From IMG/VR virus record IMGVR_UViG_3300048589_000345, positions 1 through 45,319 of that record: 45,319 nt of DNA, one strand, 5' to 3'. The notes beneath the pieces are model-generated. The model saw nothing but the letters and a program-made list of their open reading frames with translations. It had not been told where the DNA came from and made no database searches. The position numbers and the translations under genes were made by a program. Numbering within the stretch: position 1 is the first letter of the stretch; each line of letters starts with the position of its first letter. This DNA comes from a virus. Below, piece by piece: positions 1 through 20,288 of this stretch.

Positions 1-84
1 GGAAAGCACCGTAACCGGCGGGGGCGCCCGCGCGCCGCGCCACAGGGGCGCGACACGAACACCGCAACGGAGCATGACAAATGA
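1..84 (+). CDS. 3' fragment of the small membrane protein gene that is complete at 45050-45256
   Basis: This is the C-terminal part of the 68-residue protein encoded at 45050-45256, cut by the contig end. The stop codon TGA (82-84) overlaps the ATG of the next gene (81-83). It is not a separate gene. Confidence 0.8.
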   Translation, partial: GKHRNRRGRPRAAPQGRDTNTATEHDK

Positions 85-147
85 CCATCGCAACCGATTT
101 CGAGATCCAGAACGACAAGGACATCCGCTACATCGGCGCCGCACACG
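1..147. repeat. terminal direct repeat, left copy
   Basis: Bases 1-147 match 45173-45319 except at position 3 (A here, C there) and position 21 (G here, C there). The repeat carries the end of one gene (stop at 82-84) and the start of the next (ATG at 81). This is what an assembler leaves when it reads through a circular or terminally redundant molecule. The two mismatches lie near the extreme left end and may be sequencing or assembly error. Confidence 0.9.
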
Positions 148-12938: not shown

Positions 12939-14111
12939 ATGCCGACCCTGTGGCCCTATCAACCGAACGGCCCGGTGCTCGAGCGCCTGGAGTGGCTGAC
13001 CGACGTGCTCGAATCCTCCAGCGGCGTCGAGCAACGCATCGCGCAGCGCCGCTACCCGCGCCGCTTCTTCGAATTCGACGTCCTGCTCGACGGCGCAATG
13101 GCCCGCACCGCCGAGAACCTGATCGCCGGCAATCAGGACGGCGAATGGTACCTGCCCGTGTGGATGGACGCCGAGCGCCTCGCCGCATCGCTGAGCGCGG
13201 GCGCGACAAGCGTGCCCGCTGGCGGCAGCGTGCGCGACTACGCCGCCGGCAACCTCCTGCTGCTGATGGGCAACACCGGCGCCTCGAACGAAGGCGTCAC
13301 GGTGAGCGCCTCAGGTGCCAGCGCCGTGACACTCTCCACCCCGACCGCCGCCACATGGCCCGCCGGCAGCACCGTGGCCCCGCTGCGCACCGCGCGCCTG
13401 TTCCCGAGCCTGAGCATGGCGCGGTTCACCGGCGCGAGCCTCTACGGGCGCCTGCGCTGGCAATGCGTGGACGCGACCGACTGGACCGCCGCGAGCGGCG
13501 AGACCCTTTACCGCAGCTACCCGGTCATGACGCACCGCACGAATTGGGACCAGGACCCGACGCGCGAATACACGCGCAGCCTCGCGGTTGTCGACTCGGG
13601 CAAGGGCACCCCGCGGTGGTTCGAGATCGCCGCCACCCCGGTCGCCGTGCAGAACCACCGATGGCTGTGCGACGGGCGCGCCGAGATCGACACCTTGCGC
13701 CAGTGGCTATTCGCCCGCCGCGGGCGCCTCGCCTGTTTTTGGCAGCCGAGCTGGGCGCGCGACCTCGCGGTGCAGGCGACCATCGGCGCGAGCGACACCA
13801 CCATCGACGTCGAGGCGTGCGGGTACACCACGTACATCGCCCAGGCCATCGGGCGGCGCGACATTCGCATCGAGCTGGTCGACGGGACCACCTACTACCG
13901 CCGCATCACCGCGAGCGCCGTGATCGACGCCGACACCGAGCGCCTGACCATCAGCAGCGCCCTCGGCGCGAGCGTGAGCCCCGCGAACATCTACGCCGTC
14001 AGCTTCATGCACCTGGCACGCCTGGACGCCGACGCCGTCGAGATCGCCTGGCACCGCTGGGACGTCGCCGAGGCGGTGTTCGCCACGCGAGGGATCCGCA
14101 ATGACCTATGA
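12939..14111 (+). CDS. tail tip/baseplate protein downstream of tape measure
   Basis: The product is 390 residues. It starts MPTLWPYQPNGPVLERLEWLTDVL and has R-(R)-Y-P-R-R-F-F-E-F, followed by a Trp/Tyr-rich beta structure; two internal segments (~80-150 and ~270-330) look like small inserted beta-domains. Homologous-looking proteins follow the tape measure in siphoviruses whose next gene is DUF2163/BR0599, and are taken as distal tail components. It overlaps the next gene by 11 bases. Confidence 0.6.
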   Translation: MPTLWPYQPNGPVLERLEWLTDVLESSSGVEQRIAQRRYPRRFFEFDVLLDGAMARTAENLIAGNQDGEWYLPVWMDAERLAASLSAGATSVPAGGSVRDYAAGNLLLLMGNTGASNEGVTVSASGASAVTLSTPTAATWPAGSTVAPLRTARLFPSLSMARFTGASLYGRLRWQCVDATDWTAASGETLYRSYPVMTHRTNWDQDPTREYTRSLAVVDSGKGTPRWFEIAATPVAVQNHRWLCDGRAEIDTLRQWLFARRGRLACFWQPSWARDLAVQATIGASDTTIDVEACGYTTYIAQAIGRRDIRIELVDGTTYYRRITASAVIDADTERLTISSALGASVSPANIYAVSFMHLARLDADAVEIAWHRWDVAEAVFATRGIRNDL

Positions 14112-14923: not shown

Positions 14924-17900
14924 ATGCAATTTCTAGCCTATCTCGCCGTCCTGGTCATCGGATCGCTGATCGCGGTCGCACTCGCCCCGAAACCCCCGAA
15001 GCAAAAGGCCCCGACGCTCGAGGATTTCGACCTTCCGACCGCCGAGGAAGGCCGCGCCATCCCGTGGATCTTCGGCACCTACAAAATCACCGACCCGAAT
15101 TTCATCTGGTACGGCGACCTCGAGGTGCGCACCAAAACGAAGGACAAGGTAAAGACCCGCCTCTACCGCATGGGCACGCAGCAGGAGTTCTGCATCAGCC
15201 CGGTCGACGCTCTGGTTGCGCTCGAGTACGGCGGCAAGGACTGCGGCATCACCGAGGTTACGTCGAGCCAGCAGATCAGCATCAACCTGCCTAACCTGTT
15301 CGGCGGGCGCGACAAGGAAGGGGGCATCGACGGCGACTTCGACGTGTGCTTCGGCGAGCCGACGCAGGCCGTCAACGACTACCTGCTCGCGCAGATCGGC
15401 GCACCGCTTTCCGCCTTCCGCGACTCGCTGACCCTCGTCGGGCGCAAACCGAGCTGGGTGGCGAACTCGACCTACATCAAGCCGCTCCTGCCCACCGTGC
15501 GCTGCATCGAGGCGGGGTGGGAGGACGGCACGTGCTGGTACCCGGAAACGGCGGGCATACCCGACGACAGCATCAGCTCGACGATGGCCTTCGACGAGTG
15601 GATTGATGTCTCGATTGAAAAGGACGGGTTGTGGCTGCGGATTTACATCAACGGTCAATTCAGCAACGAGGTCGAGCTGCCCTACAACCCCACCGGCCCC
15701 GTTGACCCCGCCGGGTGGATGATCGGGCGATACACATATTCCGGCGGCGACACACCGGCCTTTTTTTACGGCTTGATCGACCGCTTCGTGGTGACGCGTG
15801 CCGCGAAATACGGCGGAACCTCATTTACCCCTAGCACCGACACCCCCGGCCCATCCGACCCGTTCTGGGACGATGTGGTAATCGCACTGGACCTGAGCGG
15901 CAGCGAAGGGTCGACAACGATCACGGACATCAAGGGGCTGAGCACGTGGACCGCATGGGGCGGCGCGCATATCACCACCTCCGACGGCGTGACGGGCGGG
16001 TCGTGCCTGTCGCTGGACGGGGCCGGCGATTACCTTTCATGCCCGATCAACGCGTACAACAGCATAACCTCCGACTGGACCGTTGACGTATGCGTAAAGA
16101 TGCCCGTTGGAGCTGTGCCTACTGGTGAAATATGGACCTACGGGCAAGTAGAAGCCGCAAGCCACGGGCACGGCCTGGCGGGCAATGTGTCGGCCGGCGA
16201 AATCTGGATGCGCGGCTTCGTCGGGGCAAACCCGCCGAGCCTGCTCCCGATAGGGATCGTGGACTCTATCGAAACGGCGCCGCCCGTGTGGGACATGAAC
16301 CCCGCGCACATTATTTACAAGTGCCTGACCAGCACCGACCAAGGCGCAGGCGAACCGAGCGCGACAATCGATGACGCGAACTTTCGTGCGGCCGCGCTGA
16401 CCTTCTACACCGAGCGACTCGGCCTGAGCCTTCAGTGGCGCAACGAAGGGTCGATCCGCGACTTCCTCGCGGAAGTATGCACGCACGCCGGCGCCGTGCT
16501 CACGCTTGACCCGAGCACCGGCCTGACGCAGATCATCCCGCTGCGCGACGACTACGCCGTGGACGAACTGGACCTCTACACCGAGGACCATATCCTCGAG
16601 GTCGTCGAGTGGCAGGACGCCGCCGACGGCGAGGCCGTGAACGAGGTCACGGTCGAATACCGCAAGCGCGACGGCAGCAAGGGCACCGCAACGTGGGTCA
16701 ACCGCGCCAGCGTGCAGGAGCAAGGCGTCAGCCACGCGACGCTGAGCTTTCCAGGTATCACGACGCACGCCCTCGCGCGCCGCATCGCCAAGCGCGAATG
16801 CCTGCAACGCTCGAGCAACCTGAGCCGCGGCAAGCTCAAGGTCAACCGCAACACCTGGGACAAGCTGCCCGGGCGCGTGTTCCGCTTTTCGCACGGGCCG
16901 GAAGCCATCGCCGAGACCGTCGTGCGCGTGATCGACATCGACCTCGGCACGCTGACCGACGGCGAGATCACCATCACCGTCGTGCAGGACACATTCAGCC
17001 TCGACGATGCGATCACCGACGTCGGAGACCCCGGCGGTGGCTGGACCGCACCGGACACCGACCCCGCTGCCATCAGTACGCAGGACATTATCGAGGCCCC
17101 GTTCTGGACGCTGGTCGGCGACCTCGGCGCGGCCAACGCCGCCGCGCTGGGGGTAGACGCCGGCTATCTCATTTCGCTGGCCGTGAAGTCGAGCGCCGTC
17201 GCCGAGGGCTACAACCGCTGGACGCGCATCAGCCCCGACGACTACGCCGAGACCGGCGAGGCCATCGACTTCGCGCCGAGCGCCACACTGACAGCCTCGC
17301 TGGACCGGTCGACCTATATCGGCATTGCCCTGAGCGGCGGCACCAACCTGGACCTCGTCGAAGCCGGCTGGATCGCCATGATCGGCACCGGCACGGCCGC
17401 AGAGTTTTGCTACGTGCTTTCCGTCGACGCCGTCACCAACGAGACCATCATATACCGCGGGCGATTCGACACCACGCCGCAGGAACACGCCGCCGGAACG
17501 CGCGTGTGGTTCCTCGACGGCGACGCCCCGGACTGGCCGCGCGATCCGACGCAATGGGCCGACGGCGACGCCGTGAACGTGAAGCTGCAACCGATCACCG
17601 GCGGCGGCGTGCTGGCCCTCGCCAGCGCCAGCGCCATGACCGGAACGCTCGATTCACGCCAGGTGCGCCCGTATCCGCCCGGCAACGTCGAAATAAACGG
17701 CGACGGGCACCCGACGATATTGGCCGGGGCGCTCGCCGTCACTTGGGCACACCGTGACCGCTTGGTGCAGGGCTACTCGCACATAGACCAGTACGACCCG
17801 ACCGACTACGGGCCAGAGGCCGGCACGACCTACAACGCCTACGCCTACGACGACGCCGACGACACGCTGCTCGACAGCGACACAGGCATCAGCGGCGCCA

Positions 17901-18085
17901 CCTGGACGCCGACGATCACGACGAGCTGCACGGCGCGCATCGAAATCGAATCGGTGCGCGACGGCTACGTGAGCTGGCAGCGCCAGGTGCGCGCCTTCCT
18001 GTATTTCACCACGTCGGGGCTGTTGACCGAGGCCGGCGACTACCTGCTGGCCGAGGCCGGCGACTACCTGATCACGGAGACCTGA
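14924..18085 (+). CDS. large tail-tip (host specificity-type) protein with inserted LamG-like region
   Basis: The product is 1053 residues. The N-terminus is hydrophobic (residues 2-20), then comes the family hallmark DFDLPTAEEGRAIPWIFGTY and WYGDL. Residues ~1-210 and from ~455 (MNPAHIIYKCLT) onward form the conserved tail-tip body. Between them, ~213-450, lies a LamG/jelly-roll-like insert whose halves are in reversed order: the usual C-terminal half (W-x-D-V-S-I...IYINGQ, then GLIDRFVVTRAAKYGGTSFTP at 283-303) precedes the usual N-terminal half (FWDDVVIALDLSGSEGS at 314, SLDGAGDYLS at 363). The C-terminus carries a short tandem repeat, (L)AEAGDYL. It acts at the tail tip in host recognition and DNA delivery. 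Confidence 0.8.
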   Translation: MQFLAYLAVLVIGSLIAVALAPKPPKQKAPTLEDFDLPTAEEGRAIPWIFGTYKITDPNFIWYGDLEVRTKTKDKVKTRLYRMGTQQEFCISPVDALVALEYGGKDCGITEVTSSQQISINLPNLFGGRDKEGGIDGDFDVCFGEPTQAVNDYLLAQIGAPLSAFRDSLTLVGRKPSWVANSTYIKPLLPTVRCIEAGWEDGTCWYPETAGIPDDSISSTMAFDEWIDVSIEKDGLWLRIYINGQFSNEVELPYNPTGPVDPAGWMIGRYTYSGGDTPAFFYGLIDRFVVTRAAKYGGTSFTPSTDTPGPSDPFWDDVVIALDLSGSEGSTTITDIKGLSTWTAWGGAHITTSDGVTGGSCLSLDGAGDYLSCPINAYNSITSDWTVDVCVKMPVGAVPTGEIWTYGQVEAASHGHGLAGNVSAGEIWMRGFVGANPPSLLPIGIVDSIETAPPVWDMNPAHIIYKCLTSTDQGAGEPSATIDDANFRAAALTFYTERLGLSLQWRNEGSIRDFLAEVCTHAGAVLTLDPSTGLTQIIPLRDDYAVDELDLYTEDHILEVVEWQDAADGEAVNEVTVEYRKRDGSKGTATWVNRASVQEQGVSHATLSFPGITTHALARRIAKRECLQRSSNLSRGKLKVNRNTWDKLPGRVFRFSHGPEAIAETVVRVIDIDLGTLTDGEITITVVQDTFSLDDAITDVGDPGGGWTAPDTDPAAISTQDIIEAPFWTLVGDLGAANAAALGVDAGYLISLAVKSSAVAEGYNRWTRISPDDYAETGEAIDFAPSATLTASLDRSTYIGIALSGGTNLDLVEAGWIAMIGTGTAAEFCYVLSVDAVTNETIIYRGRFDTTPQEHAAGTRVWFLDGDAPDWPRDPTQWADGDAVNVKLQPITGGGVLALASASAMTGTLDSRQVRPYPPGNVEINGDGHPTILAGALAVTWAHRDRLVQGYSHIDQYDPTDYGPEAGTTYNAYAYDDADDTLLDSDTGISGATWTPTITTSCTARIEIESVRDGYVSWQRQVRAFLYFTTSGLLTEAGDYLLAEAGDYLITET
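18027..18070 (+). repeat. tandem repeat encoding the EAGDYL motif
   Basis: The 20-base unit CCGAGGCCGGCGACTACCTG occurs at 18027-18046 and 18051-18070 (period 24, in frame) at the end of the tail-tip gene. It encodes EAGDYLLAEAGDYL. Such short in-frame repeats near the ends of tail genes can expand or contract by slippage. Confidence 0.8.
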
Positions 18086-18089
18086 GCCC

Positions 18090-19277
18090 ATGACCGCGAA
18101 GAAAATCAGCGAACTGGCCGCCGCGAGCGCGCTCGCCGGCACCGAGACTCTGCCCGTCGTGCAAGGCGGGACCACCAAAGCGGCAACCGCGCAGCAAATC
18201 GCCGACCTGGTGAGCCTGGGCAGCTACGCGACGCAATCCTACGTCGACGCCGCGCTCGCGGGACTGAGCTGGAAGCAGGCGGTACGCGCGGCAACGACCG
18301 CCGCGCTCACGCTGGCAACCGACCTCGAGAACGGCGACACGCTCGACGGGGTCACGCTAGTGACCGGCGACCGCGTCCTGGTGAAGGACCAGAGCAGCGG
18401 CGCCGAGAACGGCATCTACACCGTCGCGGCAACCGGGGCGCCGACTCGCGCAAGCGACGCCAACAGCGGCGCCGAGTTGGTCAACGCTTCGGTCTACGTG
18501 AGCGAGGGTACCGCCAACGCCGACACGCAATGGACGTGCACCACTAACGCAACGATCACCGTGGGCAGCACCGCGCTCGCCTGGGCGCAACTGTCATCGG
18601 GCGGTGGGTCCGACGCATCCGTGACCACCTACACCCCTGCCGACGCGACAGACTGGAATTCGAGCGCCGATCCCGGCAACGTCGACGACGCTCTCGATCA
18701 ACTCGCCGACCGCGTAACCACGCTTGAAGCGGGCGGCGGCGGTGGCGGCGGATCGACCGGCAAGCAACTGATCGGCGTTGTGGCATCGGCTATGACACCG
18801 CGACAGACGGGTGGCTGCGCTAACCATGCGTGGCTCGTTGCGGCGGTCAATTACCCCGACGTGCCTTATCTCGCGTTCGACCCGAGCAACGCCGAAGGCG
18901 CGCTGTTCGCCATCCCGATGCCCAAGTCGTGGGACGAGGGCACACTGACCTTCGAGGTGATCTGGACCCACCCCGCGACGACCACGAACTTTGGCGTCAC
19001 GTGGTACTTGCGCGCGGTGGCTGTCTCGGACGGCGACGCGCTCGCGGCGACCTTCGGCACCGCCGTAAAAGTGACCGACACCGGAGGCACTACCAGCACG
19101 CAGTACATCACGGCGGAATCTACCGCTGTGACGGTTGCGGGCACGCCCGCAGCGAAGGACACCGTTTTCTTCGAGATCGGCCGCGATCCGACCGATGGCA
19201 GCGACAACATGGCGGTCGACGCCTACCTGATCGGCGTGCGCGTCTACTTCACCACCGACGCAAGTAACGAGGCATAA
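18090..19277 (+). CDS. tail fibre protein
   Basis: The product is 395 residues. Residues ~4-45 (KISELAAASALAGTETLPVVQGGTT) are the common phage fibre attachment motif. Residues ~60-168 (WKQAVRAATTA, TLDGVTLVTGDRVLVKDQ, GIYTVAATGAPTRASDAN) form a widespread fibre module. A short helix-Gly linker (~200-225: DQLADRVTTLEAGGGGGGG) suggests trimeric coiled coil before a C-terminal beta domain of ~165 residues that probably binds the receptor. It starts five bases after the tail-tip gene. Confidence 0.75.
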   Translation: MTAKKISELAAASALAGTETLPVVQGGTTKAATAQQIADLVSLGSYATQSYVDAALAGLSWKQAVRAATTAALTLATDLENGDTLDGVTLVTGDRVLVKDQSSGAENGIYTVAATGAPTRASDANSGAELVNASVYVSEGTANADTQWTCTTNATITVGSTALAWAQLSSGGGSDASVTTYTPADATDWNSSADPGNVDDALDQLADRVTTLEAGGGGGGGSTGKQLIGVVASAMTPRQTGGCANHAWLVAAVNYPDVPYLAFDPSNAEGALFAIPMPKSWDEGTLTFEVIWTHPATTTNFGVTWYLRAVAVSDGDALAATFGTAVKVTDTGGTTSTQYITAESTAVTVAGTPAAKDTVFFEIGRDPTDGSDNMAVDAYLIGVRVYFTTDASNEA

Positions 19278-19280
19278 GCG

Positions 19281-20015
19281 ATGCACACGGCGAACATGCA
19301 CGCCGCCGTCAACGGGCTGGCGCGGTGGCAGCCGGCAGACCCCCATTGGGCGAACGTGGTTCTGCTGCTGCGCGGCAACGGCGCGCAAAACGGCACCACT
19401 ATCGTTGACTCAAGCCCGTATGCCCACACGCTGACTAACTACGGCAACGTGCGACTCGACCGCAACCTGCCGCCCCCTGGCGCGGCCCGCCCCTACAGTG
19501 CCGACGTGGCCTCGATGTATTTCGACGGCACGGGCGACGGCGTGTCGGCTGCCGCACATTCCGCCTTCGCGTGGAACGGCGCCGACTGGACCGTGGAAGG
19601 GTTTGCTTACATGCAAACGACCGGGGACCGATGCGCATTCGACAACCGCAATGGGAGCAATACCGGGTGCGGGATTTATCTGAGCCTGAGTGCTGGCACG
19701 CACAAGCTGGGGTATGCGAGCAACGCCGCTGTGTTGGCCACCAGTAGCAACAGCATCCCAAACCAAGCATGGACGCATTGGGCCGTGACGCGCGCCGCAG
19801 ACACGGTGCGCGGGTATCTGGCCGGATCTAAGGGGTTTGAGTACACCGACACGCGCACCTTTGCGTCGAGCGGCGTCGTCCCATTTGTCGGGTGCACGTA
19901 CAGTCAGGGGCAGGGCTTTCTCGGTTCGCTCGACGAAGTGCGGCTCACGAAGGGGGTGGCGCGCTACACCGGCGCCAGCTTCACGCCCCCGACGATGGCG
20001 TTTCCGAATTTCTGA
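19281..20015 (+). CDS. LamG/concanavalin-like lectin-domain protein
   Basis: The product is 244 residues. The whole protein is one LamG-like jelly roll in canonical order: HWANVVLLLRGNGAQNGTT near 22, SMYFDGTGDGVS near 77, WTVEGFAYM, AWTHWAVTRAADTVRGYLAG, then LDEVRLTKGVARYTGASFTPP. Such proteins bind carbohydrates and end many phage tail operons. It is the last gene before the integrase region, with only three bases between it and the fibre gene. It provides an in-genome reference for the rearranged LamG region of the tail-tip protein. Confidence 0.75.
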   Translation: MHTANMHAAVNGLARWQPADPHWANVVLLLRGNGAQNGTTIVDSSPYAHTLTNYGNVRLDRNLPPPGAARPYSADVASMYFDGTGDGVSAAAHSAFAWNGADWTVEGFAYMQTTGDRCAFDNRNGSNTGCGIYLSLSAGTHKLGYASNAAVLATSSNSIPNQAWTHWAVTRAADTVRGYLAGSKGFEYTDTRTFASSGVVPFVGCTYSQGQGFLGSLDEVRLTKGVARYTGASFTPPTMAFPNF

Positions 20016-20023
20016 GCACCCCG

Positions 20024-20288
20024 GTGGCACGAGAGTGGCACACGCCCGCGCGGGCATGACCAGAAACCCCGGGAATTACCGCGCGGGATCCGCTTCGTCG
20101 GTCCACTCCATCATCGGCGCAACACAAAATCTGTGGCTCCCGTAAGCCGTTGATTCTGCGCTAAGTTCCTGTCCCGCCTGCACTTCCTGCCTCGCGCATC
20201 TTTCCAGCTTTCCCCGCTTTTGCCATCCTTCGCCCACTTTGACCCGCTGCCAGTGCCACATCCCGTGCCACACGGCGGCGTGTGCCAC
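20024..20288. other. candidate phage attachment region (attP) with arm-type repeats
   Basis: A 284-base gap upstream of the integrase. GTGGCAC occurs at 20024-20030 and 20035-20041, and its complement GTGCCAC at 20253-20259, 20265-20271 and 20282-20288. Spaced copies of one short motif flanking a central segment resemble integrase arm sites around an att core. The centre (~20110-20180) is less GC-rich and includes the partly palindromic GGCTCCCGTAAGCC (20135-20148). Palindrome GCCCGCGCGGGC is at 20044-20055. The exact core cannot be set without a host junction. Confidence 0.5.

What the first reader, a model, noticed from the sequence alone, without database searches (positions are those of the whole stretch)
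14924..18085. Apparent circularly permuted LamG (jelly-roll) insert in the tail-tip protein
Within residues ~213-450 the usual second half of a LamG domain (IYINGQ..., GLIDRFVVTRAAKYGGTSFTP) comes before the usual first half (FWDDVVIALDLSGSEGS..., SLDGAGDYLS). The protein encoded at 19281 has the canonical order, so the contrast is within one genome. A permuted lectin inserted in a surface loop, with both ends close together, would let it be grafted without disturbing the tip, and may change receptor choice. An alternative is two truncated LamG copies in tandem.
Basis: partly seen in the sequence, partly recalled or inferred. Interest (0 to 1): 0.75.

Follow-up and report, generated by a model that had tools for sequence, protein, structure and literature searches.

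The report
Circularly permuted lectin in phage tail tip
A phage tail-tip protein carries a sugar-binding-type (LamG) domain whose two halves are joined in reversed order yet are predicted to fold into one complete domain; the same rearranged module, in two versions, turns up at the same spot in unrelated tail tips, so it seems to be a swappable attachment cassette.

Summary
Residues ~213-457 of the 1053-aa J-like tail hub are an insert, absent from phiSHP3, QH16, YuA and the solved hubs of JBD30 and Chi. Its C-terminal LamG half (Laminin_G_3 78-140) precedes its N-terminal half. AlphaFold2 gives one compact domain (pTM 0.80) whose strands are a rotation of those of the canonical LamG at 19281 (canonical strands 11-14, then 1-10). 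Foldseek on the canonical control finds 280 PDB matches at E<=0.001. The insert finds none; its best hits are engineered circularly permuted glucanases and concanavalin A. The order recurs: seven more distinct J proteins carry permuted LamG at this site, one with the window's cut and six with another. One further copy ends a different tail protein. Each class is one clade as a domain, but its J scaffolds are not (AU p 4e-7, 1e-70), so permuted units move as modules. The window's closest relatives carry canonical-order LamG at the same site; 88% DNA identity to the nearest stops at the insert. The site also takes VWA and other domains: a module hot spot. Permutation is therefore not needed for grafting; ligand and function are untested. 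New variant of a known kind.

The parts
14924..18085 (+). J-like tail-tip / baseplate hub protein, 1053 aa, carrying the insert
   Evidence: PHROG_1101 tail protein E 2.8e-225 and Pfam Phage-tail_3; solved homologues 8rk3_o (JBD30 hub, E 1.6e-93) and 8vjh_A (Chi)
14924..15136 (+). N-terminal ~71 residues: small tail-assembly protein fused to the hub (a separate gene in relatives)
   Evidence: PHROG_1180 res 1-71 E 1.8e-22; PDB 8vjh_U 'Tail assembly protein 1', 76 aa
15560..16294 (+). Permuted LamG insert, residues ~213-457 (cut class A: S2-S3-S1)
   Evidence: J alignment; element order; AF2 pTM 0.80 for residues 203-468; DNA identity to L092 lost between 15543 and 16289
15560..15844 (+). Canonical C-terminal half of LamG placed first (strands 11-14; residues ~226-291)
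   Evidence: Laminin_G_3 78-140; AF2 strands at protein residues 226-234, 237-242, 245-251, 265-267, 283-291
15836..15862 (+). Joint between the natural C-terminus (TSFTPSTDT..) and natural N-terminus (PSDPFWDDVV..)
   Evidence: Sequence; the same kind of joint occurs between neighbouring LamG domains of tandem arrays
15860..16237 (+). Canonical N-terminal half of LamG placed second (strands 1-10; residues ~313-438)
   Evidence: S1 element E 1.2e-21; hhalign of the permuted family to a canonical LamG alignment, prob 99.9; AF2 strands
16232..16294 (+). Low-confidence linker back to the hub (residues ~437-457)
   Evidence: AF2 pLDDT <50 at model residues 235-261
19281..20015 (+). Canonical-order LamG protein P0002, used as in-genome control
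   Evidence: Laminin_G_3 1-141; AF2 pTM 0.84; Foldseek

Best explanation
Residues ~213-457 are one complete, naturally circularly permuted LamG (concanavalin-A-like jelly-roll) domain, inserted in the hub loop between the WYPxxAxI strand and the (D)MNPAHII motif of a lambda-J/JBD30-type tail-tip protein. The chain enters at canonical strand 11, runs to the natural C-terminus, crosses a short linker to the natural N-terminus, finishes strands 1-10 and returns to the hub. Shown by sequence and prediction: the order, the completeness, the single compact fold, and that permuted units recur in two registers and move between hubs as modules. Inferred: the domain decorates the outside of the tail tip and binds a host-surface (probably glycan) ligand; the window phage gained it by replacing a canonical LamG at the same site; the permuted register arose by excising one repeat length out of phase from a tandem LamG array. 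Estimated confidence: about 0.88 for a single permuted LamG domain, about 0.6 for a surface-binding role.
For: Insert boundaries from homologues without it. Swapped order against the canonical LamG of the same genome and by profiles. AF2: pTM 0.80, both halves mostly pLDDT 75-97. The DSSP strand list is a rotation of the control's list. Foldseek: 0 PDB matches at E<=0.001 for the insert against 280 for the control; the insert's top hits are 1ajo and 1ajk (engineered circular permutants) and ConA-family lectins. In BFVD one viral LamG protein matches in sequence order over 219 columns (TMq 0.62), all other listed hits <=0.26. Recurrence: class A in L019; class B in L017, L018, L020, L064, L070/L071, L255, and as a C-terminal domain ending exactly after S2, next gene overlapping, in L259/L260. 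The two domain classes are each one clade while one-clade J scaffolds are rejected (p 4e-7, 1e-70). DNA-level module replacement against L092.
Against: No model coordinates were returned, so contacts between the halves were not inspected. TM-scores to the permuted PDB entries are low (0.26-0.37). The AF2 alignment was rich in tandem-array junction segments, whose halves belong to different domains. The Pfam match is below the curated cut-off. Ligand, location on the virion and function are untested; host unknown.
Confidence: 0.82

Rival explanations
1. Two truncated LamG halves, debris of a tandem array, that do not form one domain on their own, or fold only by pairing between subunits of the hub trimer (domain swap).
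For: Tandem arrays show the same 2-3-1 order across domain junctions; the S-SKS1 array matches the insert collinearly (E 6e-7). The hub is a trimer in JBD30 (PMC11445458), so inter-subunit pairing is conceivable.
Against: In all distinct permuted cases every element is present exactly once; two different cuts, each conserved as a clade; pTM 0.80 as monomer; the class B unit also stands alone as a C-terminal domain.
Confidence: 0.1
2. Permutation is neutral: any LamG register whose ends are close is tolerated in the loop, and the permuted forms are only historical accidents of array recombination. (This concerns why it is permuted, and is compatible with the best explanation of what it is.)
For: Canonical-order LamG sits at the same site in the closest relatives, so the permuted order gives no unique grafting ability.
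Against: All eight distinct hubs with this LamG subtype at the site are permuted and none canonical, although canonical copies dominate elsewhere in the fetched loci.
Confidence: 0.5
3. In-situ rearrangement: the canonical LamG of the ancestor was permuted inside this gene.
For: The window hub is nested among hubs with canonical LamG at the same site.
Against: The window insert has no significant similarity to the L092 insert (E 0.74) but matches other LamG proteins (L002, E 6e-18); the same class A register occurs on a distant scaffold (L019).
Confidence: 0.06
4. Assembly or binning chimera.
For: The window is a metagenomic virus record.
Against: In-frame 1053-aa ORF; the same kind of order in eight or more independently assembled contigs.
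Confidence: 0.02

Closest known systems
Concanavalin A and engineered circularly permuted (1-3,1-4)-beta-glucanases CPA16M-127/-84 (PDB 1ajo, 1ajk)
   Same: Concanavalin-A-like jelly roll whose chain order is rotated while the fold is kept; best PDB matches of the model
   Different: ConA is permuted after translation (own knowledge; PMC10979261 compares ProConA and ConA) and the glucanases by design; here the order is encoded in the gene, in a phage LamG domain, inserted inside another protein
Pfam Laminin_G_3 (PF13385) LamG domains of phage tail proteins, including P0002
   Same: Same sequence elements and predicted strands
   Different: Order S2-S3-S1 (window, L019) or S3-S1-S2 (class B) in place of S1-S2-S3
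Tail-tip proteins with inserted accessory domains: lambda gpJ FNIII-A and T5 pb3 plug domain in the HDII-insertion domain (PMC10721106), oligosaccharide-binding domains decorating the JBD30 distal tail protein (PMC11445458)
   Same: Accessory domain inserted into a loop of a conserved tail-tip scaffold
   Different: Those inserts are not described as permuted; whether the lambda or T5 site is the same loop was not tested
J-like hubs of JBD30 (8rk3) and Chi (8vjh)
   Same: Scaffold homologous on both flanks
   Different: Lack the insert; short loop only

Membership tests
Laminin_G_3 / ConA-like LamG domain | Significant sequence match to the profile | tested here: inconclusive
   Window 78-140 only, 19-21 bits against cut-off 27.6; L019 44.9 and L070 46.6 bits pass; local profiles clear
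Laminin_G_3 / ConA-like LamG domain | Complete set of jelly-roll strands | tested here: met
   AF2/DSSP strands correspond to those of canonical P0002, rotated
Laminin_G_3 / ConA-like LamG domain | Canonical strand order | tested here: not met
Circular permutants | Each half present once, cut between secondary-structure elements, natural ends joined by a linker | tested here: met
Circular permutants | Same three-dimensional fold as the unpermuted parent | tested here: inconclusive
   pTM 0.80 and rotated strand list; coordinates not available for a non-sequential superposition
J-like tail hub (PHROG_1101, Phage-tail_3) | Homology of both flanks to known hubs | tested here: met
Receptor-binding / glycan-binding module | Binding to a host-surface ligand | not testable with these tools
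   Only module turnover at the site supports it

The most novel reading that the evidence does not exclude
Permutation is selected, not incidental: lectin domains of this subtype can work inside this hub loop only when re-opened at another loop, which changes the face turned to the cell. Phages would thus maintain permuted, loop-graftable lectin cassettes in at least two registers, traded between tail tips. Support: 8 of 8 distinct hubs with this subtype at the site are permuted and none canonical.
Probability: 0.3. Interest if true: 0.8.

Novelty: new variant of a known kind. Interest (0 to 1): 0.62.

Why it matters
Gene-encoded circular permutation of a lectin-type domain, in two registers and moved between scaffolds as a unit, would be a clear natural case of permutation used in (or tolerated by) modular receptor-binding evolution. 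It also marks a single hub loop as a general acceptor site (LamG, permuted LamG, VWA, other jelly rolls). Profile-based annotation misses such domains because order-dependent models see only one half. No paper describing permuted LamG in phages was found in the library searched, which lacks most subscription journals.

Tried and rejected
Full-length phage-isolate match: no record of 50,697 covers 80% of the class B insert with flanks. In-situ permutation of the L092-type LamG: rejected, no similarity. Single origin of both cut classes: unresolved; FastTree separates them, the careful tree joins them at 82/71, unstarred. PDB sequence search with the permuted family profile: apart from a chance-level hit only an S-layer LamG-like protein, 4qvs, over one collinear part. 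The full J tree was finished only as the quick version; the claim rests on the 57-row AU tests, on a quick tree. The MAFFT alignment of all J inserts was useless (11% identity), so elements were mapped instead. A half-swapped sequence was not made; the halves were searched apart.

Full report
What is there. The ORF at 14924-18085 + encodes a 1053-aa hub protein of the lambda-J/JBD30 type (PHROG_1101 E 2.8e-225, Phage-tail_3), followed by a tail gene at 18090, a canonical LamG protein at 19281 and an integrase at 20282. Alignment with phiSHP3, QH16, YuA, L004, L006 and L007 puts an insert of about 245 residues between I212 and N459. The solved hubs 8rk3_o (JBD30) and 8vjh_A (Chi) align to the insert-free profile across this point; for Chi the printed alignment shows a short loop only.

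Order of the halves. Pfam Laminin_G_3 sees only its second part (78-140), at the start of the insert. Three element profiles made here (S1 = DPYWDNVV..TIEAWV, S2 = W.HVAV..DG.., S3 = iG..GyIDdfRiTkGvARY; canonical order S1-S2-S3) give S2-S3-S1 in the window, each clearly above noise. Two BLASTP matches to P0002 of the same genome are in swapped order.

One domain, not two. AF2 on residues 203-468 with 70 rows gave pTM 0.80, with most blocks of both halves at pLDDT 75-97 and only the ends poor. The control, P0002 with a matched alignment, gave pTM 0.84. The DSSP strands of the insert are the control's strands 11-14 followed by 1-10, with small differences in how short strands are split. Foldseek against the PDB: the control has 280 matches at E<=0.001, TMq about 0.6; the insert has none, and its best hits are the engineered circular permutants 1ajo and 1ajk, and concanavalin A relatives, at low TM of 0.26-0.37 for those leading hits. 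In BFVD one viral LamG protein (Pyramimonas orientalis virus) matches in sequence order at TMq 0.62, every other listed hit <=0.26. This contrast is what a rotated chain order predicts.

Recurrence. From scans seeded by the J scaffold, 163 hubs had both flanks; 44 carry at least 130 aa at this same site. Among these, and a further insert-seeded scan, permuted LamG occurs with the window's cut in L019, and with a second cut (S3-S1-S2) in L017, L018, L020, L064, L070/L071 and L255; L017 and L018 are 99% alike. L259/L260 carry the second form as the C-terminal domain of an upstream tail protein (its N-terminal part resembles the window protein at 12939); the ORF ends just after S2 and overlaps the next gene. 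So the permuted unit is self-contained. At the hub site, no canonical copy of this LamG subtype was seen; canonical LamG of another subtype is there in L092, L093 and L004, full length and collinear, and the inserts of L013 and L043 were classed with them by eye. The site also accepts VWA domains (Pfam VWA E 1e-10) and several other folds.

Movement. The two domain classes are each one clade (supports 97-100 in the careful tree). Their hubs are not: holding the class A hubs, or the class B hubs, together is rejected (AU p 4e-7 and 1e-70). The window's hub lies inside a clade whose other four members carry LamG inserts in canonical order. Against L092, DNA identity is 88% up to 15543, nothing until 16289, then 76%, and 92% again near the integrase; the two inserts are unrelated at sequence level. 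The reading is module replacement at a hot spot. The tail-fibre region downstream (about 18,000-20,000) is also largely unmatched to L092, which fits turnover of host-contact parts.

Origin and function (inference). Tandem LamG arrays have the same order across each domain junction, and L070/L071 encode such an array close downstream of the hub. Cutting out one repeat length out of phase gives a permuted domain at once. [quoted passage not shown] whether it is the same loop was not tested. Permutation is not required for insertion, since canonical LamG is accepted at the same place. What it may change is the face presented; that is a hypothesis.

Noticed in passing
L150, L151, L155, L157, L163, L165, L166, L168, L170, L119, L287, L312, L314, L318, L319 at the same hub site: von Willebrand A-type domains with a DxSGSM-like metal-site motif are inserted at the same hub loop, in several separate places of the J tree.
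   Followed up: partly
L259:67-2136 and L260: Permuted class B LamG is the C-terminal domain of another tail protein (similar to the window protein at 12939-14111), ending right after S2 and overlapping the next gene.
   Followed up: yes
window 14924-15136: The hub's first ~71 residues match a small tail-assembly protein that is a separate gene in relatives (PHROG_1180, 8vjh_U): a gene fusion.
   Followed up: partly
window 18000-18082 (hub C-terminus): Repeated LLTEAGDYLLAEAGDYLITE motif; similar TEAGD repeats end the hubs of phiSHP3 and QH16. In JBD30 the hub C-terminus docks the receptor-binding protein (PMC11445458), so this may be a docking peptide.
   Followed up: no
BFVD A0A7M4CEP4_1 (Pyramimonas orientalis virus 01B): The only viral model matching the permuted insert in sequence order over its whole length (TMq 0.62); possibly another permuted or array-offset LamG, in a giant virus.
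   Followed up: no
L006:6854-8140, L057, L069, L077, L149, L134, L128: Other large modules at the same loop (a ~430-aa module of unknown fold; glycoside-hydrolase-type jelly rolls with 'ILWARR'-like motifs).
   Followed up: partly
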